A stretch of DNA of 10,465 bases from Chloroflexota bacterium (GTDB lineage Bacteria; Chloroflexota; Anaerolineae; B4-G1; SLSP01): assembly GCA_022707665.1 (NCBI GenBank), contig JAKJAE010000073.1:1-10465 (forward strand). The letters are read 5' to 3'. Shown in pieces: positions 1 to 10,465 of this stretch. The position numbers were made by a program, and so were the translations under genes. Within the stretch, counting starts at the first letter, position 1, and every line of letters begins with the position of its first letter. The notes under the pieces were generated by a model. It had not been told where the DNA came from. It did no database searches and saw nothing but the letters and a program-made list of their open reading frames with translations.

Positions 1-2614
1 GTGATCCGTGACGCTCTCCTGTCCAGCAGAAGTGAAGCAGGGCGTCAGGGTTCACGACGTGCTCCGGCTTCTCTCCCGCGAGCAAGCGCTCGATCGCTTC
101 GACGACGAGGGCGCCCTGGTGCGCGCCCACCTCACGCGTGTTTCCCCCGAGGTGAGGTGTGGCGATGACGTTCGGGAAGCCCAGGAGGGGGTCATCCGCG
201 CCAGGCGGCTCGGCAGCGAACACGTCCAGAGCCGCGCCCCCCAGCTTGCCCGACCGCAGAGCATCGACCAACGCCGCATCGTCGACCAGCGCGGCGCGGG
301 CCGTGTTGATGAGGAATGCGCCGTCCTTCATGCGCGCCAGGGCCTCGGCGCTGATGAGGCCACGCGTCTCGTCGGTGACCGGGGCGTGAAGGGAGACGAT
401 GTCACTCTGTGCGAGGAGATCTTCCAGAGTGACCTTCTCAACACCGAGAAGGACAGCCTCCCCGGTCGTGAGGAAGGGGTCGACCACGACAACGTGGGCG
501 CCGAACGGCCGCAGGCGCCGGATCACCTTGCGCCCCACGGCTCCCGCGCCTACGAGCCCAACCGTCTTGCCCCAGAGCTCACTCCCCTGGAAGCGCTCGT
601 GGGCCATACCCATCCGGCCCATATCGCCAGCTTCACCTCCGGGCTCGCGGAGGAAGAGGGCAGCCTCTGGAAGCTTCCTCAGTAGCATCAGGGCAAAGGC
701 CAGCGTGAGATCGGCGACGGCGTCCGCGTTGCGTCCCGGCGTGTTGATCACGGGCACACCGGCTGCGGTGCAGGCGGTCAGGTCGACATTGACGGGATCG
801 CCCCGGCAGACCACAATGGCTCGCAGGTCGGGCAGCTTCTGCAGCGCCTCCGCATCGACCACGTCAACTTCGGTGACGAAGATGTGGATGCCGGCTAAGG
901 TCTCCCAGAGGTCTTCGCCGACCAGCAGCCGGCTCTCGCGCCGGTAGCTGGCAAAGGTCACGTCGCTCAGGGCGCGCAAGCGGCTGAGAGAGGCCTCATC
1001 CAGCTCCGCGCTGACGTAAATGCGGGGCCGGACATTGCCTGCAGGACTGGGCGCGTGTCCCGGTGCGGGCCGGGCCATCACCTCGCGCACGATGGTTTCG
1101 GCGGCATCGGCGTCCACATCCTCACGCCTGTCGAGAAGCGCCCGCCAGCCCTCGTAGCGCGACCGGTAGCCGGCGGCGGATGCGGCGTCGGGAGTGTAGA
1201 CGTGCATTGCCCTGATGAGGCGTTCGCCCGCTGCGGCCAGGTCAGGGTGGAGCCCTACGCCGGTGGCGGCGCCCAGGGCAGCGCCGAGCGCGGCCGCCTC
1301 GGTGGTCGGGCCGATGCGCACCGGGCTGTCGAGGACATCGCTGACGAGCTGCGCCCAGACCTGACTGCGGGCCATGCCGCCGGTCAAGCCGATCCCGTCC
1401 AGGGGCTGGCCCGAGACCCGCTGCACTTGTTCGACATTGGCGCGAACCGCATAGGCCATACCTTCCAGAACGGCGCGCGCCATAGCAGCGCGTCCTGCGG
1501 CGTCGCCGGTGGCGCTCGTTGCTGCGAAGGTCAACGTATCGGTGGGTAAGCTGAGTGCTGTAGCATCGAAGAGGTGGGCCCCGGCGGTCGAAAGGACTCC
1601 GTAGGCCCCCGGCGGTACCGTAGCGGCCTCGGCGCAGAGCGCTGCGACCGGGTTCGGCGCGTCGCCATACCACGAGGCTGCCAACCAGTCGAGCGCCCGG
1701 CCCATCGCTCCCGCGTTGCTCTCCAGCACGTAGCGGCCCGGCACGGCGTGCATGCCGGTCCAGAGGCGCTTGTGGGGATCAATGCCTGGCGCGCTGGTGA
1801 CAGCCATGACCGATGCCGTCGTGCCGGTGACGACGCCCACCTGTCCTGATGCGACGGTGCCCATTGCGAGGAGGCTGCACTGGGTGTCGGCCCCGGCACT
1901 GACGACGGGGATGCCGGCCTTCAGGCCAAGGTGCCGAGCGGCGTTATCTGAGAGCATGCCGATCGTAGTCCCGGCGTCGACAAGATCGGGGAACAGGTGG
2001 CGCGGCAGTCCCAGCGACGCGATCAGGTCGTCGTCCCACGCCTGCTGCTCGAGGGAGTAGGCCATTGATTCGCCTGCAAGGGTCCGGCTGGCGGTGATGG
2101 CTCCGGATAGCCGGTATCCCAGCCAATCGGCAAGGCCCAGGGCAGCCGATGCACGCGCCAGTGTCGTGGGGGCGTGTTCAGCGAGCCAGAGCAAGCGTAC
2201 GCCGGAGAGGATCGGGTTGGGCCAGCGTCCTGTGCGCCGGTAGATCTCCTCGCCCCGGTCGTTGCTCAACTGGAGGGCAATGACCCCGGCGCGCGCATCC
2301 AGGGTGGGGGTGCCAAAGAGGGGGGATCCAGCGGCATCGATGACGACCATGCCGTGGCGCATCGAGGCGATGCCGACAGCCGCAATCCCGTCCGCGGCAG
2401 CCCCGGCCCGGGCGAGGGCCTCGCGGGACATCTCTCCGACAGCACGCCAGACGAGGTCGACATCGAGGTCAAAGGCCCAGGGCCAGTACGCCGGGGCGCG
2501 AGTGTGATTCCAGCTACGGCTGCTCATCACTGCCGTACTGGTTTCGGTGTCTACGACTAGGCAGCGGCCCCCGCCGCCGCCGAGATCGATCCCCATGACA
2601 TATCGTGCGCGCAT
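1..2614 (-). CDS. FGGY carbohydrate kinase fused to D-2-hydroxyacid dehydrogenase (3' end cut by window edge)
   Basis: One open frame of 871 codons without a stop, running off the left edge; ATG at 2614 follows AGGGGAG. Residues 1-500 are an FGGY kinase, which transfers ATP phosphate to a sugar or polyol hydroxyl. Visible motifs are the N-terminal phosphate loop D10-LGGGGGR17, DARA at 106-109 (a DARA motif I also recall from the autoinducer-2 kinase LsrK), GAD with likely catalytic base D242, GTT at 264-266, TGGMARS at 411-417 and EAAALGAALGAA at 439-450. A Pro/Ala-rich linker (about 500-528) leads to a D-isomer-specific 2-hydroxyacid dehydrogenase (529-871): NAD-binding GAGAVG at 689-694, acidic D712, catalytic R773, E802 and H821. 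Both halves are near full family length with all key residues, so both are probably active. The codon phase is continuous across the junction. The stop should lie just outside the window. The SDR gene ends 75 bp upstream. The substrate is unknown; an aldose, polyol or AI-2-like compound is possible. Confidence 0.93.
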   Translation of the reverse strand, partial: MRARYVMGIDLGGGGGRCLVVDTETSTAVMSSRSWNHTRAPAYWPWAFDLDVDLVWRAVGEMSREALARAGAAADGIAAVGIASMRHGMVVIDAAGSPLFGTPTLDARAGVIALQLSNDRGEEIYRRTGRWPNPILSGVRLLWLAEHAPTTLARASAALGLADWLGYRLSGAITASRTLAGESMAYSLEQQAWDDDLIASLGLPRHLFPDLVDAGTTIGMLSDNAARHLGLKAGIPVVSAGADTQCSLLAMGTVASGQVGVVTGTTASVMAVTSAPGIDPHKRLWTGMHAVPGRYVLESNAGAMGRALDWLAASWYGDAPNPVAALCAEAATVPPGAYGVLSTAGAHLFDATALSLPTDTLTFAATSATGDAAGRAAMARAVLEGMAYAVRANVEQVQRVSGQPLDGIGLTGGMARSQVWAQLVSDVLDSPVRIGPTTEAAALGAALGAATGVGLHPDLAAAGERLIRAMHVYTPDAASAAGYRSRYEGWRALLDRREDVDADAAETIVREVMARPAPGHAPSPAGNVRPRIYVSAELDEASLSRLRALSDVTFASYRRESRLLVGEDLWETLAGIHIFVTEVDVVDAEALQKLPDLRAIVVCRGDPVNVDLTACTAAGVPVINTPGRNADAVADLTLAFALMLLRKLPEAALFLREPGGEAGDMGRMGMAHERFQGSELWGKTVGLVGAGAVGRKVIRRLRPFGAHVVVVDPFLTTGEAVLLGVEKVTLEDLLAQSDIVSLHAPVTDETRGLISAEALARMKDGAFLINTARAALVDDAALVDALRSGKLGGAALDVFAAEPPGADDPLLGFPNVIATPHLGGNTREVGAHQGALVVEAIERLLAGEKPEHVVNPDALLHFCWTGERHGS

Positions 2615-2689: not shown

Positions 2690-3511
2690 CTAGACCAGAA
2701 AGCCTCCATGCGAATGGATGACCTGGCCCGTGACCCAACCGGCTTCTGCGGAAGCGAGGAAGCGAATCAGTCGAGCGGCATCGTCAGGCATGCCCAACCT
2801 GCCCAGAGGCGCCTGGGATTCCCATCGCGCTTTGAGGTCAGGCGAGATCCAGCCAGTATCGGTAACGCCCGGGTCAACGGCGTTCACCGTGATCCCCAGC
2901 GATGCTACCTCGGCACTGAGGCTGAGCGTAAAGGCTTCGACCGCGCCCTTCGTCGCAACGTAAGCAAGCTCGCCGGGCATCGGACCCAACGACTGGCCCG
3001 ACGTGAGGTTCACGATGCGTCCGAACGTGCTTGTCGTTCCCGCTGCATCTGTGTGCTCCCCGAGAGCCTTGCGGTAGCGCCGAACAAACTCGACACACAT
3101 GAGCGCCATACCGCGCAAGTTGACAGCGTAGGTGCGGTCGAGCTGCTCGGCGGTCAGAGCATCGATGCCGCCCTGCATCGAGTAGGTAGCATTGTTGACG
3201 AGGACTTGCACCGGTCCAAGGGTGTGCTCGACGGTCTCGAACAGGCGCGCCGGTGCAGTGGGATCGGAGAGATCCACCTCGAGCCCCTCGGCCTGGCAAC
3301 CCAGGCCGCGCAACTCGGCGAGGAGCTCCTGCGGGTCATCCGGGTTGGGACTGTAGACCAGGCCCGATTCGTGGTCGTAAGGACGGTAGTAGGTGATGAA
3401 GACGGCGTCCCAGTCGCGGGCGAGGGAGCGGGCGATTGCTGCGCCGATGCCGGCCTTGCGGCTGGCGCCAGTAACGAGGGCAACGCCCTGGGCTCTCTTT
3501 CTTGATGTCAT
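2690..3511 (-). CDS. Short-chain dehydrogenase/reductase (SDR)
   Basis: A 273-residue classical SDR, the usual length, with a Rossmann fold binding NAD(P). Visible motifs: TGASRKAGIG at 14-23 (the TGxxxGxG cofactor loop with a two-residue insertion), D80, NNAT at 106-109 (in place of NNAG), N131, catalytic S171, Y184 and K188 in the YxxxK motif, and DPG at 213-215. It should be a cytosolic alcohol/ketone oxidoreductase of the 3-oxoacyl-reductase-like (FabG-like) type. The insertion after the first strands (about residues 42-60) resembles a group of bacterial SDRs of unassigned substrate. The frame is open up to 3685, but ATG 3511 is preceded by AGAAGGAG at five bases spacing and starts just before the first beta strand, whereas the upstream extension is low-complexity Gly/Ser and covers a G-rich hairpin. 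It lies between the Fe-S protein and the kinase fusion. Its substrate cannot be told. Confidence 0.93.
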   Translation of the reverse strand: MTSRKRAQGVALVTGASRKAGIGAAIARSLARDWDAVFITYYRPYDHESGLVYSPNPDDPQELLAELRGLGCQAEGLEVDLSDPTAPARLFETVEHTLGPVQVLVNNATYSMQGGIDALTAEQLDRTYAVNLRGMALMCVEFVRRYRKALGEHTDAAGTTSTFGRIVNLTSGQSLGPMPGELAYVATKGAVEAFTLSLSAEVASLGITVNAVDPGVTDTGWISPDLKARWESQAPLGRLGMPDDAARLIRFLASAEAGWVTGQVIHSHGGFLV

Positions 3512-3596
3512 GTCCGCTCCTTCTGCTCTCGCAGATTCACTGTCAACTGTGTTCCGATGTGGCGGGAAAGACGAGGGGTGACTACTGCTAGAGGAG

Positions 3597-3620
3597 CCCC
3601 CCCTCCCCAGCCCTCCCCCC
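3597..3620 (-). promoter_or_regulatory. Potential G-quadruplex in the leader before the SDR gene
   Basis: On the minus (transcribed-sense) strand there are four G tracts, complementary to C runs at 3615-3620, 3611-3613, 3605-3608 and 3597-3603, separated by loops of one, two and one bases. Tracts of at least three G with such short loops fit the standard quadruplex pattern. It lies about 85-110 nt upstream of the SDR start codon. Folding in DNA or RNA is inferred, not shown. Confidence 0.45.
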
Positions 3621-3648
3621 AGGGCGTCAGAACGCCCTGGAGGGAGGG
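3611..3648 (-). terminator. GC-rich hairpin directly after the Fe-S gene (possible terminator or processing element)
   Basis: Arms 3611-3627 and 3632-3648 pair over 16 of 17 positions around the four-base loop caga at 3628-3631. The hairpin begins three bases after the TGA stop of the Fe-S protein gene. No T run follows on the minus strand; a G-rich stretch does, so this is not a canonical intrinsic terminator. It may attenuate transcription or protect the upstream message. The downstream arm supplies two of the four G tracts of the adjacent potential quadruplex. Confidence 0.5.
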
Positions 3649-3651
3649 AGA

Positions 3652-4728
3652 TCAGAGTCGATGTGCCATTCGTTCTGCTTGCCACGCGGCCTCATCGAGC
3701 GGCGGAACGAGGAGGTCGTCCTCGGGCCGACGGGTGAGGCTGATGGCATCAACGGGGCAGACAAGCGTACACTGCCCACATCCAACGCAGCGCATCGGAT
3801 CGACCACCGCCACGCCCCCGGTCGCGGCGATCGCGCCGAACTTGCAGCGATCCTCACACGCACCGCAGCCGATGCAGAGTGTCTCGTCGACCACGGCAAG
3901 GAATGCAGAGCGGGCGATTGCAGTTGGGACGTCGAACTCAGCGACGCGACGGAGCACGCCGCAGCAACAGGTACAGCAGTTGCAGATGTAGTACTGGCCC
4001 GAGCGGTGATTGCTCACACTATGGACCAGGCCGGCCTCTTCGGCCTCGCGCAGGATGCGCAGCGCCTCGTCTTTGGTAATCGCGCGGTTGACATCCGAGC
4101 CATCGAAGGCACCCTCGACCGGGGCGAAGACCATACAGTTCTCGATGGGCGCATCGCATCCTTTTCCAAGGAGGTGCTGTTGTGTGCGGCAGATGCACTG
4201 ACGCACGCCCCACGACTTGGCGCTCTCAACGAGGGCTGCGGCCCGTTCATAGGGATGGATTTCGACGTTGTTGCCGATGGCTTCGCCCACTGGCAGCACC
4301 CGGTGCACCGAGGGTCCCGGGACGGCCTGCATGCCCTGCGAATCCCGAAAGTAGGCCTCGAAGAGCGCCGCCATCTCGGCATCCATCCGTGGAAGCTGTG
4401 CTTCGTAGGACCCCACAACGAAGGGCATCAGCGCGAACAGCAGGACCCGGTCACCACGCTGCATCGTGACCAGGCCGTGGCGGACCATGTCCTTGAGCGT
4501 ACGGGCGGCAGCCCGGGGCTCAACGCCAGCGCGAGAGGCGATGGCATCCGGGGATTCGGGCTCCATGGTCATCACGCTGCCGAGCCGGGCCTCCTCAGGC
4601 GTGAACATCCATGCAAGCAGGCGCAACTCGGCGCCTGTCTGCGTCGCCGGGAAGCCGTTGGGCATCGCATCCAGTTGCCGCGCCAGTGCACGGTAGGTGG
4701 CTTCGTTTTCCGCATTCAGCTCTGCCAT
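3652..4728 (-). CDS. Cysteine-rich 4Fe-4S dicluster protein with N-terminal winged-helix-like region
   Basis: A 358-residue protein with 18 cysteines. Residues about 50-100 look like a winged helix (a PDAIASRAGVEPRAAARTLKD stretch followed by GLV). The middle has CxCR at 178-181 with further cysteines at 191 and 198. A dense cysteine patch, YICNCCTCCCGV, holds C249, C251, C252, C254, C255 and C256. The C-terminus has two classical ferredoxin motifs: CxxCxxCxxxC at 285/288/291/295 and CxxCxxCxxxCP at 314/317/320/324, which normally bind two [4Fe-4S] clusters. No signal peptide or membrane segment, so probably cytosolic electron transfer. The ATG at 4728 follows a perfect AGGAGG. It lies in line with the OYE and Gfo/Idh/MocA genes and could carry electrons to or from one of them (inference). 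The winged-helix region could instead be a structural or DNA-binding sensor domain. Confidence 0.9.
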   Translation of the reverse strand: MAELNAENEATYRALARQLDAMPNGFPATQTGAELRLLAWMFTPEEARLGSVMTMEPESPDAIASRAGVEPRAAARTLKDMVRHGLVTMQRGDRVLLFALMPFVVGSYEAQLPRMDAEMAALFEAYFRDSQGMQAVPGPSVHRVLPVGEAIGNNVEIHPYERAAALVESAKSWGVRQCICRTQQHLLGKGCDAPIENCMVFAPVEGAFDGSDVNRAITKDEALRILREAEEAGLVHSVSNHRSGQYYICNCCTCCCGVLRRVAEFDVPTAIARSAFLAVVDETLCIGCGACEDRCKFGAIAATGGVAVVDPMRCVGCGQCTLVCPVDAISLTRRPEDDLLVPPLDEAAWQAERMAHRL

Positions 4729-4753
4729 AGCCGTCCTCCTCAGATCCTGTCAG

Positions 4754-4770
4754 ATGCCGGTAGCCGGCAG
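4754..4770. repeat. Inverted repeat upstream of the Fe-S gene
   Basis: Arms TGCCGG (4755-4760) and CCGGCA (4764-4769) flank the three bases tag. CCTG at 4746-4749 and CAGG at 4773-4776 could extend the stem after an internal bulge. It lies about 27 bases upstream of the Fe-S start codon, so it could affect translation initiation or message stability. It could also be chance in GC-rich DNA. Confidence 0.35.
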
Positions 4771-4796
4771 GTCAGGAACGCGGTCCGCGATCCTGG

Positions 4797-4823
4797 GGTC
4801 CTGGCGTGAGTCCATACAGGACC
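4797..4823 (-). terminator. Hairpin at the end of the Gfo/Idh/MocA gene
   Basis: GGTCCTG (4797-4803) and CAGGACC (4817-4823) form a perfect 7-bp stem around a 13-base loop. On the minus strand the stem starts at the last base of the TAG stop codon. No T tract follows, so any termination would be weak or Rho-dependent; message protection is another option. A further small palindrome, CGCGGTCCGCG, lies at 4779-4789 on the Fe-S gene side. Confidence 0.35.
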
Positions 4824-6196
4824 TATTCCTCTGGCTGTGGAATGTCAACCGGAGGCACTTCGTCAAAGGAGAGCGGCTCGCTATCGGATGGCATGGGGGC
4901 GTAGTCGGGCATACCGATGTCGTGCACCAGGTCGTCGATCCGGATCAGCTTGCCTGTGCGCATCGAGGCGTTGGCTGCAACACCGGTCAGGATGGAGTAG
5001 GCGCCCGCACGCTGGTCGGCTGCTGTCAGATAGGGATCGGCGGGTGGGTTTTCGCCGAAGAGGTCCTCGAGGATACGTCCGTCGCCGCCTCCGTGGCCGC
5101 CACGCGACGTCCAGACGTCCACATCGTAGGATGGGCTGAAGTGCGGGATGATGCGGATGTGCGTGCCGCGTTCGACTGTCTGGCCAGGCACTGTGCCATC
5201 GGCGTTGATGTAGGAGGACTCGACGGTGGTGTGTTCCAAGCGTCCACGCGTGCCATTGATCGAGACGGTGTAGCCCTCCCACGGCATGAAGGCGTTGAGC
5301 GAGTAGCTCATCTTGGCGCCGTTCTGGTAGTCGACGACCAGGGCCATCGTGTCCTCGATGTCGATCAGATCGCTGAAGACGCAGCGGTCGCGGAAGTAAC
5401 CATCATAGACCTCGTTGTCCAGGTAAAGACGCTTAAGTCCTTCGTGGGCGGCCATATCGAGGCGGAAGCGGCAGTTTGTCTCGGGGCAGGTGAGGCAGCG
5501 CTCGGTACGGTTCGTGAGGCCGAAGCGATCGGCGGTCTGGGGTGTGTAGAAGCGTCGGTGACCCTGAGCGAAGACGGCCTCGGGCACCGAGGCAAGCCAC
5601 CAGTTGATCAGGTCGAAGTGGTGGGTGGCCTTGTGAACCATCAGCCCGCCGGAGTTCTCCTTGTTGCGGTGCCAGCGCCGGAAGTAGTCGGCACCGTGGC
5701 GCGTATCGAGGAGCCAGTGGAAGTCGAGCGAGAGGACCTCGCCAATCACGCCCGACATAAGCAGTGCTTTCATCTGAGTGCGCGGCGGCGAGTAGCGGTA
5801 GTTAAACGTCACGCGACAGCGTTTCCCGGTGGCTCGCTGGGCATCGATGATGCGCTGGCACTTCTCTGCGTCGGTGGTCATCGGCTTCTCGGTGATGACG
5901 TCACAGCCCAGCTCCATGGCGCGGACGATGTAGACGTCATGAAAGCAGTCCTTCGTCGTGACGATGACCGTATCGGGTTTGGTCTCGGCGATCATCTGGT
6001 CGAAGCTGCGGGCGGGATAACCCTTCACCGCCGCACCCATCTCACGCGCTTCCTCGACCGCGAGGGCGATGCGGCCCTCGTTGACGTCGCAGACTGCAGC
6101 CATCTCAGATGTGTCGGCGTAGGTCTGCAGGATGCCGTAGAGGTACATTTTTGACCGTCCGCCCAGCCCTACCTGTACATAGCGTTTTCGAGACAT
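4823..6196 (-). CDS. Gfo/Idh/MocA-family oxidoreductase with a cysteine-containing insertion
   Basis: A 457-residue protein, longer than the roughly 340-390 residues common in the family. Members oxidise or reduce sugars and cyclitols with NAD(P). The N-terminal Rossmann part has VGLGGRS at 9-15 and the family EKP signature at 103-105 with K104; the catalytic region is HKATHHFD at 188-195, a variant of the usual Gly-Gly-x-x-x-Asp-x-x-x-His-x-x-Asp stretch. Inserted at about 230-275 are four cysteines: CLTC at 234/237, C242 and C272. Such CxxC...C insertions occur in related uncharacterised members and may bind a metal or stabilise a loop. The C-terminal tail (about 430-457) is acidic and Pro-rich. 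ATG 6196 is preceded by AAAGGA. It lies 65 bp after the OYE gene, in the same cluster as a DegT aminotransferase. Gfo-type oxidation followed by DegT transamination is a known pairing in amino-sugar and aminocyclitol routes. The exact substrate is not identifiable. Confidence 0.93.
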   Translation of the reverse strand: MSRKRYVQVGLGGRSKMYLYGILQTYADTSEMAAVCDVNEGRIALAVEEAREMGAAVKGYPARSFDQMIAETKPDTVIVTTKDCFHDVYIVRAMELGCDVITEKPMTTDAEKCQRIIDAQRATGKRCRVTFNYRYSPPRTQMKALLMSGVIGEVLSLDFHWLLDTRHGADYFRRWHRNKENSGGLMVHKATHHFDLINWWLASVPEAVFAQGHRRFYTPQTADRFGLTNRTERCLTCPETNCRFRLDMAAHEGLKRLYLDNEVYDGYFRDRCVFSDLIDIEDTMALVVDYQNGAKMSYSLNAFMPWEGYTVSINGTRGRLEHTTVESSYINADGTVPGQTVERGTHIRIIPHFSPSYDVDVWTSRGGHGGGDGRILEDLFGENPPADPYLTAADQRAGAYSILTGVAANASMRTGKLIRIDDLVHDIGMPDYAPMPSDSEPLSFDEVPPVDIPQPEE

Positions 6197-6261
6197 TCGA
6201 GGTCCTTTCGAGGCGGGGTTCTCACCTTATCCCTGGCGACTTACCTTCGTGCTTCGGGCTG

Positions 6262-7710
6262 TCATGACGCACTCTTTAGCTTCCGCTTCGCCTCGTCGAG
6301 CTGTGCCTTCTCGGGTCGCTGCTTGTAGAAATCGTCGAGCGGATAGCAGCCGGAGGGCAGGGCCGAGCGGGGCGCGGTGGTGCAGTCGCTGAAGGTGCGG
6401 CAGATGCGCCGGCGATCCAGGGCATGCCCTACCAGAGCGTCGGCAGCGAAGTCGGGGTAGGGAAGCACCATGCGCCCCAACCCGACGAAATCGGCCTGAC
6501 CCGTGCGAACGACGTGTTGCGCGACGTTGGGCAGCCACTCCTGCAGGTAGGAGTAGCCCGATCCCACGAAGCACAGATCGGGCCGGTGCTGCTTGAGCTG
6601 TGCGGTGACCCAGATCTGCCGTGCAACACCAACCAGCGGATCCTCGGGCGGTTCGTAGCCATCCGAGGGTGGGAAGAGCGCCGGGCGCTGGATGTGTGGG
6701 ACGTAGTAGGGGCTGCCCGCAGTCACGCACACGAGCTCGATTCCCAGCTCGGCAAGGAGATCGACGAAGGCGAACGGCTCGGACAGGTCAATGCCGACAC
6801 CGGTGCCATCGCCGCCGAAGGCGTAGTCATACGTCGGGCCGTCGAAGGGCACCGGCTCGCCCACGCCATCGGGTCCCGGACGGAACGGCACGAAGTCGAA
6901 TGCGCTGACCCGTACGCCGATCCGCATACCCGGCACCTCGGCGCGGATTCCGCCCGCGATTTCCCGCAGGTAGCGGGTGCGGTTCTCGAAGCTGCCACCG
7001 TAAGGACCAGGACGGGTCCTGGCACTGAGGAGCTCGTGCCCCAGGTAGCCGTGGCAGTGTTTCACGTCGACGAACATAAAGCCTGCTTGCTGTGCCAGTT
7101 TCGCCGCCGCAACGGTCCGATCAATCAGACGGCGGATATCGTCGTCGCTGATGACGGGCGCGTCTGCGGGGATGCCGAACTTTGGATCGAGCAGGGGGTG
7201 ATGGTAAGCAATTCTGGGCTCAAGCTTGGTCCACGACGTGGGCTTGCAGAAGCGTCCCGAGTGGGTGAGCTGCAGCCCCACGAGCAGATCGTCGGCGGTG
7301 CCATACCGCTCGCGGTGGGCATCGACGAGCGTCTCACGCAGCGCGGCAAGGGCACCGACCGTGTCCGGCGAGATCAGCAGTTGGTTTGGGTTCGCGCGCC
7401 CGTCGGGCTGCACAGCCGTAGCTTCGCCGCCCCAGATCAATTTGCACCCGCTCAGGCCAAAGTTGCGCCACCGACGTTGGGTCAGGTCGGTGGGAAGCCC
7501 ATCGGGCGTGCCATCCCAGCCCTCCATCGCCAGCACACAGAAGCGGTTGCCGATGGTGAAGCCATCCTTCAGGGTGGCGGGCCGTGCCAGTGGCGTCTCC
7601 GGTCCGGTTGCCATCTCGGCGTCAAAGCCCAGATGGAGGCCAAGTGCCTTGAGCTGTGCAGAAAACGCCTCCGGTGTTCGAAGCGTCGCGATCCGTGGGT
7701 AATCAGGCAT
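6262..7710 (-). CDS. Old Yellow Enzyme-family NADH:flavin oxidoreductase
   Basis: A 482-residue FMN-dependent TIM-barrel protein of the OYE / 2,4-dienoyl-CoA reductase type. Visible motifs: QLTHSGR at 147-153; DVKHCHGYL at 215-223, whose H218 and H220 match the substrate-binding histidines of the family; PYGGSFENR at 236-244; VGSG at 382-385; and FVGLGRM at 408-414, which usually bind FMN phosphate. These enzymes reduce activated C=C bonds or transfer electrons to other acceptors. It is longer than single-domain OYEs (about 350-380), partly through an insertion at about 272-310, but lacks the second, dinucleotide-binding domain of the 670-residue enzymes. C437, C443 and C455 near the C-terminus might be a remnant or variant of the cluster-binding cysteines; one ligand appears missing. 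ATG 7710 follows AAGGAGA; the frame is open to 7881 but that extension covers the upstream gene's end. The 50-bp gap to the DegT gene is AT-rich, with TGATTCT repeated at 7741-7747 and 7756-7762. Confidence 0.93.
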
Positions 7711-7760
7711 CAGGTGAGATCTCCTTGATTGGCTGCTTCTTGATTCTTTATTCTCTGATT

Positions 7761-8936
7761 CTAGAGCCCCGCCGCCACCTGTTTCACCTTCGAGATCATG
7801 GCGTCCAGATCCTCGCGAGTGCGCGTGGGGTCGGTATGAAGGTAAGCCGTGCGCGACAGGACGTCGAGCGTGCGTGGGCACATGTCCTTTGAGTAAGCCA
7901 CTGGCTCGGGAGCGAGCTGGTAGGCGTCGAAGGCCGGATGATGAGCACCCTGCTGGCTCATGATGGGCTCCCAGTTGCTGTAGACGTGGCGACCGCTGTC
8001 GATTGGCGTGTCAGCGCTCACGCCAACAGCGTGGACACCGTCGAGGAAGCGGCGCATCGTGGGCTCGCTATCGAACAGCAGGGCCACCGTGGTGCCACAG
8101 TCGCCCTCAACGTCGTGGATCGGGTTGAACGTGAAGGGTCCGGTGCCGTTGAGCGCTTCGATGATCGTTCGTTTCTCCGTCAGCATCGCGTCGAGCATGC
8201 CGTCGAGGCGCGTGAGCTGGACTCGCAGGATCGCGCTAAGGATCTCGTTGATGCGGAAGTTCCACCCCGCGAAGATAGGGCTCTGGAGCTCTGCGGCGTG
8301 GTTCCGAAACGAGCTGCCGCCATCGTGGAAGATCAGGGCCCGTTCGTAGACCTCGCGGTCATCGGTCACCAGGGCGCCGCCCTCACCACAGGTCATGATC
8401 TTGAAGTGGTTGAACGAGAAAGCGCCCGCGTGGCCGATGGCACCCAGGCGCTTGCTACCGTAGGCGCCGCCATCGGCCTGGCATGCATCCTCCAGCACCT
8501 TCAGGTTGTGCCGGGCTGCAATGTCCATAATGGCGTCCATATTGCTGGGCAGGCCAACCATGTGGACGGGGATGATGGCCCTGGTCCGGGGCGTGATCTT
8601 GCGCTCGACGTCCCTGGGATCGATCGTCAGCGAGGCATCGACCTCGGCGATGATGGGAACGGCACCGACCGCGAGCGGGGCCAGCGGCGTGGCCATGTAC
8701 GTGTAGGCCGGGACAATGACCTCATCACCGGGCCCGATTCCAAGGCCCACGAGCCCCATGATCAACGCTGCGGTGCCGCTGGTCACGGCGATGGCGTACT
8801 CCGTCCCGATCTTCTCGCGCCATTCTTTTTCAAAGGTGTCCGACTCGCCGCCCTCGCCTCCGCGATAGCGGAAGAGCTGGCGCGACTCGATCACCCGCTG
8901 GACTGCGTCAACCTCTTCTTTGCCGATGATGTACAT
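7761..8936 (-). CDS. DegT/DnrJ/EryC1/StrS-family PLP-dependent aminotransferase
   Basis: A 391-residue protein of the fold-type I PLP enzymes that transaminate keto-sugars and keto-cyclitols, usually with glutamate or glutamine as amino donor. Motifs: SGTAA at 53-57 for the PLP phosphate, EDACQADGG at 149-157 with D150 near the PLP nitrogen and Q153 stacking, and FSFNHFK at 173-179 followed by TCGEGG, so K179 is the Schiff-base lysine. The catalytic lysine is intact, so it is more likely an aminotransferase than a regulator-like homologue. The start is uncertain: ATG 8936 has GGAGG eleven bases upstream and begins at the conserved IIGKEEV helix; a GTG at 9035 with a weak ribosome-binding site would add 33 residues and is possible. 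It is first after a roughly 300-bp gap with a candidate promoter. Biosynthesis of an amino sugar, or its catabolic reversal, are both possible. Confidence 0.92.
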
Positions 8937-8955
8937 GGGTGCACTTGCCTCCGGT

Positions 8956-8968
8956 TGTCTGCCAGACA
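8956..8968. promoter_or_regulatory. 13-bp palindrome, possible operator
   Basis: TGTCTG-C-CAGACA is a perfect inverted repeat around one central base. It lies 20 bases upstream of the preferred ATG of the aminotransferase gene, next to its ribosome-binding site, or inside the coding region if the GTG at 9035 is used. Short odd-spaced palindromes of this kind are typical of GntR- or LacI-family regulators, but no regulator gene is in the window, so this is only a candidate. Confidence 0.35.
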
Positions 8969-9112
8969 GACTCGTGATCAGGGGGGTGGTGACAGGGTCA
9001 AACCACAGATCCCAATCGGGCTGAGCCCTGATCACCGGTCTCTCGTGCTTAGTTCATCTGATGTTTGGGGTTCGTAGGTGCGGCCTCGGTCGATCCGGAG
9101 CCTCAGCAGGCA

Positions 9113-9130
9113 CGCCCAGCAGACTGGGCG
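9113..9130 (-). terminator. Hairpin between BtpA-family and aminotransferase genes
   Basis: CGCCCAG (9113-9119) and CTGGGCG (9124-9130) form a perfect 7-bp GC-rich stem with a four-base loop, caga on the plus strand. No T run follows on the minus strand, so it is either a weak terminator or attenuator for transcripts from upstream, or a structural part of the leader. The loop matches that of the hairpin at 3611-3648. Confidence 0.4.
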
Positions 9131-9160
9131 GCAGGAGAACCGATGAACCGTTACCTGCGA
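9129..9160 (-). repeat. Degenerate copy of a short intergenic repeat
   Basis: It aligns with 10112-10140 over 25 identical bases with a few small gaps. Shared blocks are CGGCA, GAACCG, TGAA, GTTAC and CGA in the same order. In this copy the hairpin present in the other has decayed. It is placed between genes like the other copy, which suggests a REP-like dispersed element rather than coding sequence. Confidence 0.45.
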
Positions 9161-9198
9161 ACCAATTTGGCTGACCGCCGGTCACTGCCCCTGGGGCC

Positions 9199-9226
9199 AT
9201 TGTAGTCCCGACAGGGGGATACGCAA
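9199..9226 (-). promoter_or_regulatory. Candidate sigma-70-type promoter for the aminotransferase operon
   Basis: On the minus strand, TTGCGT (9226-9221) and TACAAT (9204-9199) are separated by 16 bases. It starts 11 bases after the end of the BtpA-family gene, and transcription would begin near 9192, inside the palindrome GCCCCTGGGGC. It would give a leader of roughly 155-255 bases. The match is reasonable but unproven, and GC-rich phyla often use other promoter rules. Confidence 0.35.
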
Positions 9227-9236
9227 CGGCATGGGC

Positions 9237-10046
9237 CTACCGAAGCTCCCGGACGCGGTCCATGAAGGCTCGGACGCGGGCTTCATCGACGTGGTTCTCG
9301 AAGACGCCATCTATCTTGAACGTGGTGCCAACCACGGCGCCATCGGCGATGGCGAGCTGCTGCTCGACGTTGCTGAGCTTGACGCCGGTGTTGGCGAAGA
9401 CAATGGTGCCGGGGACGATGTCCTTGACGGCCTTGAGGGTCTGCGCGTCGGTACTGGCGCCGGCGATCAGGCCCGAGACACACAGAGCGTCGGGCCGGTG
9501 GTTGAAGACGGTCGATCGGGCGATGGAGACGATGTCGCGCCCGCCCAGGTATTGAGCCGCCTCGGGGACGATGTTGAAGAGCAGCTTCACGTCTTGAGCG
9601 CCGATGGCATGTTGGTGGCGCACAACGGCGCCGCAGTTCGTATTCCAAAGGCCAAAGTCGCTGGCGTAGACGCCGGAGAAGATCTCGCGCACGAAGCGCG
9701 CGCCGGTCGCCACAGCCAGGTCGAGCGACGCCGCCGGATCCCAAAGCACGTTCACACCGAAGGGGATGCGGATGTCGGGCAGCAACTCACCGATCACGCG
9801 CGCCATCGCCGCCACGGTCACCGTCTCCACCTTGGTCAGATAGGGCATGCTGAACTCGTTGGAGAACATCACGCCGTCGACGCCGCCGTCCTGCAGCGCC
9901 AGGAGATCCTTCCGCGCCCAGGCGATCACGTCCGCCATCCCGGTGGCCTGGTCATACTTGGGGTCGCCTGGCAATGCATTCAGGTGGCACATCGCGATGA
10001 TGGGCTTATCCGTACCGAACAGGTCCAGGGTCCAGGGAATCGTCAT
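9237..10046 (-). CDS. BtpA/SgcQ-family TIM-barrel protein
   Basis: A 269-residue protein matching the BtpA/SgcQ family. Recognisable stretches: IIAMCHLNALPGDPKY at about 16-31, GGVDGVMFSNEFSMPY at 54-69, FGVNVLWDP at 96-104, SGLIAGAST at 191-199, and FANTGVKLSNV (217-227) leading to ADGAVVGTTFKIDG (234-247), all in the order expected of a TIM barrel. BtpA is named from a cyanobacterial protein needed for photosystem I accumulation; SgcQ lies in an uncharacterised sugar operon of E. coli. The catalytic activity of the family is not settled, and the nearness to kinases and sugar oxidoreductases here favours a role in sugar or nucleoside-like metabolism. ATG 10046 is preceded by GGAGAGG; the frame continues upstream to 10421 but that part overlaps the kinase gene in another frame and is not family sequence. 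No signal peptide, so probably cytosolic. Confidence 0.9.
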   Translation of the reverse strand: MTIPWTLDLFGTDKPIIAMCHLNALPGDPKYDQATGMADVIAWARKDLLALQDGGVDGVMFSNEFSMPYLTKVETVTVAAMARVIGELLPDIRIPFGVNVLWDPAASLDLAVATGARFVREIFSGVYASDFGLWNTNCGAVVRHQHAIGAQDVKLLFNIVPEAAQYLGGRDIVSIARSTVFNHRPDALCVSGLIAGASTDAQTLKAVKDIVPGTIVFANTGVKLSNVEQQLAIADGAVVGTTFKIDGVFENHVDEARVRAFMDRVRELR

Positions 10047-10111
10047 CGTCACCTCTCCGAGTGTTAGTTCTCCGCACGGCCTGGCGCGCGCCGGTGGTGC
10101 GCAGGTAGAGC

Positions 10112-10140
10112 CGGCAGAACCGCTGAAGCGGTTACTACGA
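10112..10140 (-). repeat. Intergenic REP-like repeat with hairpin
   Basis: It contains AACCGC (10118-10123) and GCGGTT (10128-10133) as a 6-bp stem with a four-base loop (tgaa on the plus strand, TTCA on the minus strand). It lies in the 110-bp gap between the partial kinase and the BtpA-family gene. A second, degenerate copy is at 9129-9160. No T tract follows, so it is better explained as a dispersed palindromic repeat than as a terminator. Confidence 0.45.
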
Positions 10141-10156
10141 GCTGCGATAGGCCTGT

Positions 10157-10465
10157 CTAGATAGCCGCCAGCCGGTGCATCAGGTCCGCAGTCTGTGTGT
10201 ACAGCGCGCGATAGATCGCGTAGGTGGTCTCGTACGCCGTGGGTCTCGGATCGGCGGGCACGATCCATCGCCCGTTCTTGACCCAATGTGCGACCTCGGT
10301 CAGGTCGTGGAACGCGCCGATGCCCACACCGGCCATGAAAGCGTCGCCGTAGCTCGCGCCGATCTGCTGCTCGGGGACTTCGAGCGCGATGCCCGCAACG
10401 TCGCTCACGATCTGCAGCCATAACCGGTTCCGGGCGCCTCCACCGACGGCGAGGATGCGGTGAGC
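10157..10465 (-). CDS. FGGY-family carbohydrate kinase, C-terminal fragment (5' end outside window)
   Basis: The last 102 residues of a sugar kinase whose start lies beyond the right edge; stop TAG at 10159-10157. AVGGGARNRLWLQIVSDVAG (residues 6-25 of the visible part) is the FGGY C-terminal signature that contacts ATP, with the usual W-x-Q-I-x-x-D pattern, and GASYGDAFMAGVGIGAF (36-52) is the following adenosine-binding helix. The tail with Y-x-x-x-Y spacing (about 78-90) is typical of xylulokinase-like members. It is clearly different from the kinase half of the fusion at 1-2614, which has TEAAALGAALGAA in the same place, so this is a second kinase and not a recent duplicate. It would phosphorylate a sugar or polyol in the cytosol. 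Subfamily cannot be decided from this fragment. Confidence 0.92.
   Translation of the reverse strand, partial: AHRILAVGGGARNRLWLQIVSDVAGIALEVPEQQIGASYGDAFMAGVGIGAFHDLTEVAHWVKNGRWIVPADPRPTAYETTYAIYRALYTQTADLMHRLAAI

What the first reader, a model, noticed from the sequence alone, without database searches (positions are those of the whole stretch)
1..2614. Single-chain fusion of an FGGY sugar kinase with a D-2-hydroxyacid dehydrogenase
The frame is continuous from ATG 2614 to the window edge, and my residue-by-residue translation gives 871 codons with no stop. Kinase residues (D10, D242, GG at 412-413) and dehydrogenase residues (GAGAVG 689-694, R773, E802, H821) are all intact, joined by a Pro/Ala-rich linker at about 500-528. 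FGGY kinases and D-2-hydroxyacid dehydrogenases are normally separate proteins. A fusion suggests they act on the same pathway intermediate, for example a phosphorylated aldonate or 2-keto acid, and could channel it. I cannot say whether this architecture is already catalogued.
Basis: partly seen in the sequence, partly recalled or inferred. Interest (0 to 1): 0.72.

Follow-up and report, generated by a model that had tools for sequence, protein, structure and literature searches.

The report
Truncated kinase–dehydrogenase–lipid-carrier–aldolase fusion gene
The fused sugar kinase and dehydrogenase at the edge of this DNA piece is the first two-thirds of a larger four-part enzyme that also carries a lipid-carrier-type domain and a carbon–carbon-cutting aldolase, recurs in several bacterial phyla, and for which I found no published description.

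Summary
The frame is real: ATG 2614 to the contig edge, 871 codons, FGGY kinase plus D-2-hydroxyacid dehydrogenase, catalytic residues intact (one misnumbered: Asp is 243, not 242). But it is a truncated piece. A homologue identical at 868 of 871 residues is 1304 aa long; the full order is kinase – dehydrogenase – SCP2 (sterol-carrier type) – class II aldolase. Of the 80 best loci fetched from named genomes, 78 have kinase and dehydrogenase in one frame and 57 have all four domains in one frame, in Chloroflexota, Myxococcota, Actinomycetota, Proteobacteria and Planctomycetota. Others keep the aldolase as the next gene (7) or all three enzymes as neighbouring genes (1). So it is no artefact, and the three enzymes probably share a pathway. 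The aldolase resembles DHAP-forming fuculose-1-phosphate and 5-deoxyribulose-1-phosphate aldolases. In 12 of 80 loci the gene adjoins steroid-type genes (CasG-like ligase, KshA-like Rieske, P450), never in the window's phylum; there, aldehyde dehydrogenases or sugar-acid genes are nearby. Best reading: a catabolic fusion that phosphorylates, oxidises and cleaves a sugar-like chain, SCP2 perhaps holding a hydrophobic part. Substrate unproven.

The parts
2..2614 (-). Truncated ORF: first 871 codons of a ~1304-aa kinase-dehydrogenase-SCP2-aldolase protein; 3' end beyond the contig
   Evidence: 868 of 871 residues identical to P0001
1868..2602 (-). FGGY_N (aa 5-249), D10 and D243 present
1262..1834 (-). 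FGGY_C (aa 261-451), GG 412-413
1031..1126 (-). Pro/Ala-rich linker (aa ~497-528); low model confidence at 518-526
50..964 (-). 2-Hacid_dh catalytic domain (aa 551-855) with R773, E802, H821
146..700 (-). 2-Hacid_dh_C NAD-binding domain (aa 639-823), GAGAVG 689-694, D712
2690..3685 (-). SDR oxidoreductase directly upstream; also directly upstream of the fusion in a same-genus genome (81% identical, L097)
3652..4728 (-). Protein with C-terminal [4Fe-4S] domains; same-strand gene run
4823..6196 (-). Gfo/Idh/MocA oxidoreductase; same-strand gene run
6262..7881 (-). Oxidored_FMN (old-yellow-enzyme type) protein; true start probably internal
7761..9035 (-). DegT/DnrJ/EryC1 aminotransferase family protein
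9237..10421 (-). Frame holding a BtpA/SgcQ family protein (Pfam match aa 138-391)
10157..10465 (-). C-terminal fragment of a second FGGY kinase, cut by the other contig end

Best explanation
The ORF is the 5' two-thirds of a single-chain catabolic enzyme: FGGY kinase – D-2-hydroxyacid dehydrogenase – SCP2 – class II aldolase. SHOWN: domain order, one frame, conserved catalytic residues, recurrence across phyla, and separate-gene counterparts of the same three enzyme types side by side. INFERRED: the kinase phosphorylates a terminal hydroxyl of a sugar, polyol or sugar acid; the NAD-dependent dehydrogenase sets the oxidation state next to it; the aldolase binds the phosphorylated end and cleaves the chain to DHAP (or a like C2/C3 phosphate) and an aldehyde, which neighbouring aldehyde dehydrogenases, aldehyde:ferredoxin oxidoreductases or CoA ligases take on. 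The SCP2 domain may hold a hydrophobic part of the substrate or product, so that in lineages with steroid-type neighbours the substrate would be a lipid carrying a sugar-like chain. I put ~0.97 on the architecture, ~0.75 on 'kinase, dehydrogenase and aldolase act in one pathway', ~0.65 on 'DHAP-type retro-aldol cleavage', ~0.35 on 'hydrophobic substrate' (lowered from 0.4 on re-check, because the 20 genomes of the adjacency count were picked by me after I had seen some of their neighbours). The order of the kinase and dehydrogenase steps is not known.
Against: No substrate or activity is known. Steroid-type neighbours are in 12 of 80 loci only, none of them Chloroflexota, the window's phylum; the window's own neighbours look like sugar or small-acid genes. 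The 20-genome count is not a clean test: I chose the genomes after seeing some of these neighbours, it includes the two loci that supplied the queries (L050, L016), it ignores relatedness, and there is no catabolic-gene control. Nine loci have K-DH with no aldolase detected; four of these end within 1 kb of a contig end, five (L059, L061, L062, L065, L068) do not, so the aldolase need not be encoded nearby. L077 has an amidohydrolase next to it and a P450 at 2.8 kb but no SCP2. In the trees the sampled K-DH-only forms lie inside the fused group, so loss of SCP2 and aldolase is as possible as later gain. A D-2-hydroxyacid dehydrogenase normally needs an alpha-hydroxy acid, which a plain polyol-lipid is not. 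The ALDH-like gene of the mycobacterial loci is distant (Pfam 1.6e-19; no NCBIfam match at 1e-20). SCP2 lipid binding is assumed from the family, and the SCP2 part of the model was not reached by the fold comparison.
Confidence: 0.6

Rival explanations
1. Small-molecule reading: the fusion degrades a small sugar acid, tetritol or uronate product, and SCP2 is a membrane- or oligomer-contact module without a role in substrate binding.
For: The separate kinase|2HADH|aldolase genes of S. meliloti and Shinella sit with sugar ABC transporter genes and a sugar-binding transcriptional regulator; in S. meliloti pSymB they directly precede genes annotated glycerol-3-phosphate dehydrogenase, class II aldolase, FGGY kinase, and further on triose-phosphate isomerase and RpiB. 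Anaerolineae neighbours: beta-glucuronidase (L007, L022, L072) and glucuronate isomerase (L007); a sugar-binding regulator at L006. The aldolase also resembles 3-oxo-tetronate 4-phosphate decarboxylase.
Against: Those separate-gene forms lack SCP2, which is present and sometimes doubled in the fused family; CasG-like ligase and KshA-like Rieske genes adjoin the fusion in some Myxococcota and Gammaproteobacteria.
Confidence: 0.4
2. The three activities act on both halves of a cleavage: the aldolase cuts first, and dehydrogenase plus kinase convert the released C2/C3 acid (hydroxypyruvate or glyoxylate, then glycerate) to phosphoglycerate.
For: The dehydrogenase scores with phosphoglycerate dehydrogenase and glyoxylate/hydroxypyruvate reductases. 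A published guess for B. subtilis YoaDC has YoaD produce glycerate and YoaC phosphorylate it (PMC2885750, passage). K-DH without a detected aldolase in 9 of 80 loci.
Against: The phosphate-end residues of FucA-type aldolases (N, SS before E; residue roles recalled) are identical in 46 of 46, which suggests a phosphorylated aldolase substrate. No FGGY glycerate kinase is known to me (recalled).
Confidence: 0.2
3. The two-domain joint is an assembly or sequencing artefact.
For: The gene is cut by a contig edge, and the G000 assembly is fragmented (513 contigs).
Against: Kinase and dehydrogenase are in one frame in 78 of 80 loci from named genomes (the others: L083 with separate genes, L075 a fragment), some in long contigs such as NZ_LGHJ01000011 and CP070734.
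Confidence: 0.01

Closest known systems
LsrK, autoinducer-2 kinase (5ya0) and other FGGY kinases
   Same: FGGY fold over the first ~495 residues, 30% identity; conserved Asp and GG
   Different: NCBIfam AI-2 kinase score 266.9 against cut-off 528; fused to further domains
Phosphoglycerate dehydrogenase / D-2-hydroxyacid dehydrogenase family
   Same: GxGxxG, Asp712 after it (NAD type by a recalled rule), Arg/Glu/His catalytic set
   Different: PGDH score 236.3 against cut-off 454; Arg628 identical in 34 of 34, role unknown
DrdA 5-deoxyribulose-1-phosphate aldolase and FucA L-fuculose-1-phosphate aldolase
   Same: Class II aldolase fold and catalytic residues; the Drd pathway also ends in DHAP plus an aldehyde (PMC6079011, passages)
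   Different: The Drd route uses kinase, isomerase and aldolase as separate proteins; here a dehydrogenase is fused and no isomerase domain is present; ~30% identity
Separate kinase | 2HADH | class II aldolase genes on S. meliloti, Shinella and Paracoccus plasmids
   Same: Same three enzyme families, adjacent, same order
   Different: No SCP2, not fused; kinase and aldolase fall outside the fused groups; S. meliloti kinase scores best with XylB, aldolase with FucA-type models
Sphingosine kinase + sphingosine-1-phosphate lyase (recalled)
   Same: Alike in outline: phosphorylate the polar head, then cut to a lipid aldehyde and a small phosphate
   Different: Unrelated proteins and chemistry; analogy only

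Membership tests
FGGY carbohydrate kinase | FGGY_N and FGGY_C domains above cut-off | tested here: met
   138.7 and 74.9 bits
FGGY carbohydrate kinase | Catalytic Asp in the GADTQ motif and GG of the C-terminal half (roles recalled) | tested here: met
   D243 and G413 34 of 34; G412 in window
Autoinducer-2 kinase (LsrK) | NCBIfam equivalog cut-off 528 bits | tested here: not met
   266.9 bits
D-2-hydroxyacid dehydrogenase | GxGxxG plus Arg/Glu/His catalytic set | tested here: met
Phosphoglycerate dehydrogenase (SerA) | TIGR01327 cut-off 454 bits | tested here: not met
   236.3 bits
Class II aldolase (full-length relatives) | Aldolase_II domain, three His and a Glu | tested here: met
   162.2 bits in P0001; 46 of 46. 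Not present in the window itself (contig ends first)
L-fuculose-phosphate aldolase (FucA) | NCBIfam fucA cut-off (TIGR01086, 400.25 bits) | tested here: not met
   77.4 bits for L106
5-deoxyribose disposal (Drd) pathway | Kinase, isomerase and aldolase encoded together | tested here: inconclusive
   The fusion has a dehydrogenase and no isomerase domain; a separate isomerase gene was not sought
SCP2 domain | PF02036 above cut-off | tested here: met
   43.9 bits in P0001, 56.2 in L010; cut-off 21.3
SCP2 domain | Binds a hydrophobic ligand | not testable with these tools
   needs protein

The most novel reading that the evidence does not exclude
The fusion is a dedicated machine for removing the sugar-derived side chain of polycyclic lipids. 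It would bind the ring system in SCP2, phosphorylate and oxidise the polyol or sugar-acid chain, and release DHAP plus a lipid aldehyde that becomes an acid and is activated by a steroid-24-oyl-CoA-synthetase-like ligase. The chain of ribosyl/ribonyl-hopane is a 5-substituted 5-deoxyribose, the skeleton that DrdA-type aldolases cleave. Such an enzyme would turn bacteriohopanepolyols into the C32 aldehyde and acid (hopanoid chemistry recalled).
Probability: 0.1. Interest if true: 0.9.

Novelty: new variant of a known kind. Interest (0 to 1): 0.6.

Why it matters
A four-part kinase-dehydrogenase-SCP2-aldolase chain found in Chloroflexota, Myxococcota, Planctomycetota, Actinomycetota and Proteobacteria implies an unrecognised catabolic route whose steps are physically coupled. 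An SCP2 domain inside a sugar-type enzyme is unexpected. If the substrate is a polyol-lipid, the gene would give a genetic handle on how such lipids are broken down. It is directly testable with one expressed protein.

Tried and rejected
Assembly artefact: rejected. AI-2 kinase identity: below cut-off. SAM-riboswitch link, after the recalled B. subtilis yoaDCB S-box operon: no Rfam match at gathering scores in 141,604 bases from 7 sources. Missing 3' end in the same genome: the own-genome search lists no second high-identity place, so the gene is cut by the assembly. A conserved gene neighbourhood across the loci: not found; in my clustering no other cluster reaches more than 6 of the 80 loci (its simple gene caller chose wrong frames in GC-rich DNA, for example in the window). 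Fold match for SCP2: the 50 VIA rows shown are of the aldolase part, so nothing follows for SCP2. For the kinase-dehydrogenase model the 50 Foldseek rows shown are FGGY kinases, so the dehydrogenase fold rests on sequence matches. Papers: searches returned none; one search listed 5, unrelated by title. Hopanoid-degradation enzymes: searches listed 3 papers each, seen as listings only. PMC6302742 searched for yoa, FGGY, hydroxyacid dehydrogenase, SCP2, hopan: none. Most subscription papers are outside that library.

Trees: the aldolase tree is poorly resolved and warns of long branches; in it the Smithella-type neighbour aldolases group with the rhizobial ones (100/99). Rows were chosen by me: 22 fused loci of 80 for the trees, 34 rows for A3, 46 for A2, 24 for A1.

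Full report
WHAT IS THERE. The minus-strand frame from ATG 2614 to base 2 is open for 871 codons and runs off the contig; the window is the whole contig C484 of a 3.06-Mb, 513-contig, 73%-complete genome. Pfam finds FGGY_N, FGGY_C, 2-Hacid_dh and 2-Hacid_dh_C above cut-off. The prediction (mean pLDDT 88.5) has a low-confidence joint at 518-526; its kinase part is closest to LsrK, its dehydrogenase part matches phosphoglycerate dehydrogenases by sequence.

IT IS TRUNCATED. The protein search (1482 matches, 120 listed) returned P0001, which differs from the window at 3 of 871 residues but is 1304 aa long; 113 of the 120 listed (my reading) carry FGGY, 2-Hacid_dh, SCP2 and Aldolase_II. The order is kinase, dehydrogenase, SCP2, aldolase. 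A same-genus genome (G045) carries these parts on two contigs whose ends overlap at 96% identity, with a frame change in the linker of one.

HOW WIDESPREAD. A scan of genome contigs found 419 of 456 stretches encoding a relative (of any part of the query); the best 80 were kept, which favours full-length ones. My profiles sorted them: 51 K-DH-SCP-ALD; 5 with two SCP2 and 1 more with a split DH match (L082); 1 with the kinase over two frames (L042); 1 K-DH-ALD (L077); 7 K-DH plus a separate aldolase gene; 1 with three separate adjacent genes (L083); 9 K-DH only; 4 pieces or broken copies (L030, L032, L070, L075). Of the 9, L051, L056, L060 and L080 end within 1 kb of a contig end; L059, L061, L062, L065 and L068 have 3.9 kb or more on both sides without a detected aldolase. 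Organisms include Anaerolineae with the strain Bellilinea caldifistulae GOMI-1, Myxococcota, Mycobacterium, Halioglobus, Actinomycetota, a planctomycete and Smithella. It is patchy: 10 of 48 genomes of the order at E <= 1e-150. In a sample of the phylum 5 of 301 matched the SCP2-aldolase model at 1e-60, but only 3 of these in a ~1315-aa frame, the other 2 by the aldolase end alone; G000 itself counts as a miss there because the part is cut off.

WHY ONE PATHWAY. Kinase and dehydrogenase trees put the 22 sampled fused rows together (98/97 and 89/55), next to the three-gene form of L083. On plasmids of S. meliloti, Shinella and Paracoccus the annotated order is kinase, 2-hydroxyacid dehydrogenase, class II aldolase, with ABC transporter genes. 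In Smithella-type loci the neighbouring aldolase groups with the rhizobial ones and not with the fused ones, so K-DH seems to have paired with an aldolase more than once; that tree is weak elsewhere. The sampled K-DH-only forms lie inside the fused group, so loss is possible.

WHY A LIPID MAY BE INVOLVED. SCP2 scores above Pfam's cut-off. Within 600 bp of the gene lie a CoA ligase in 8 of 80 loci, a KshA-like Rieske protein in 7 and a P450 in 5. Within 1 kb at least one of these is found in 12 of 80: L016, L025, L026, L027, L037, L038, L041, L042, L049 (a weak P450 match), L050, L073, L076; a weak ligase match at L035 is not counted. The best NCBIfam match of two of these ligases is steroid-24-oyl-CoA synthetase (615 and 664 bits, below its cut-off of 750). 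The Rieske proteins carry KshA_C (L050) and match 4beta-methylsterol monooxygenase only weakly (64 to 85 bits, cut-off 600). In 20 whole genomes a Rieske match lay within 250 bp in 5 (expected 0.07) and a ligase within 600 bp in 4 (expected 0.09). That is not a clean test: I picked the 20 of 80 after seeing some of these neighbours, the count contains the loci that supplied the queries (L050, L016), ignores relatedness, and has no catabolic-gene control.

None of the 12 is Chloroflexota. There the neighbours are ALDH (L007, L022, L072, L078), beta-glucuronidase (L007, L022, L072), glucuronate isomerase (L007), or aldehyde:ferredoxin oxidoreductase-like genes (L004, L055, L082), and many loci show none of the families I looked for. 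ALDH-like genes are within 600 bp in 8 of 80; three of these are closely similar mycobacterial loci with a distant ALDH, and one (L032) is a partial match at a contig end.

LIMITS. No assay, no substrate, no order of steps. A 2-hydroxyacid dehydrogenase suggests a carboxylate in the substrate, which favours sugar acids. I hold the architecture as settled, the shared pathway as likely, the lipid reading as open.

Noticed in passing
window 2690-10465: The Pfam-matched genes of the contig all run on the minus strand: SDR, Fe-S protein, Gfo/Idh, old-yellow-enzyme type, DegT aminotransferase, BtpA/SgcQ, second FGGY kinase fragment; together they look like one sugar or amino-sugar type catabolic cluster.
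   Followed up: partly
window 3652-4728: 358-aa protein with [4Fe-4S] motifs at the C-terminus; its first ~275 residues have no Pfam match at 0.001.
   Followed up: no
L027:4002-5408 and L041:659-2059: Lignostilbene/carotenoid dioxygenase-like gene near the fusion in a Halioglobus genome, and one alike by eye in a second.
   Followed up: partly
L004 and L055, upstream of the fusion: Conserved run: aldehyde:ferredoxin oxidoreductase-like gene, aminotransferase-like gene (same cluster as the class III one of L039), M28-peptidase-like gene (by eye), NAD-epimerase, fusion.
   Followed up: partly
L029, L033, L039, L053, L078, L082: Two SCP2 domains in tandem inside the fusion.
   Followed up: no
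L110:6721-10273: Haloarchaeal plasmid with a class II fructose-bisphosphate-type aldolase, FGGY kinase and 2-hydroxyacid dehydrogenase adjacent: a like trio with a different aldolase family.
   Followed up: no
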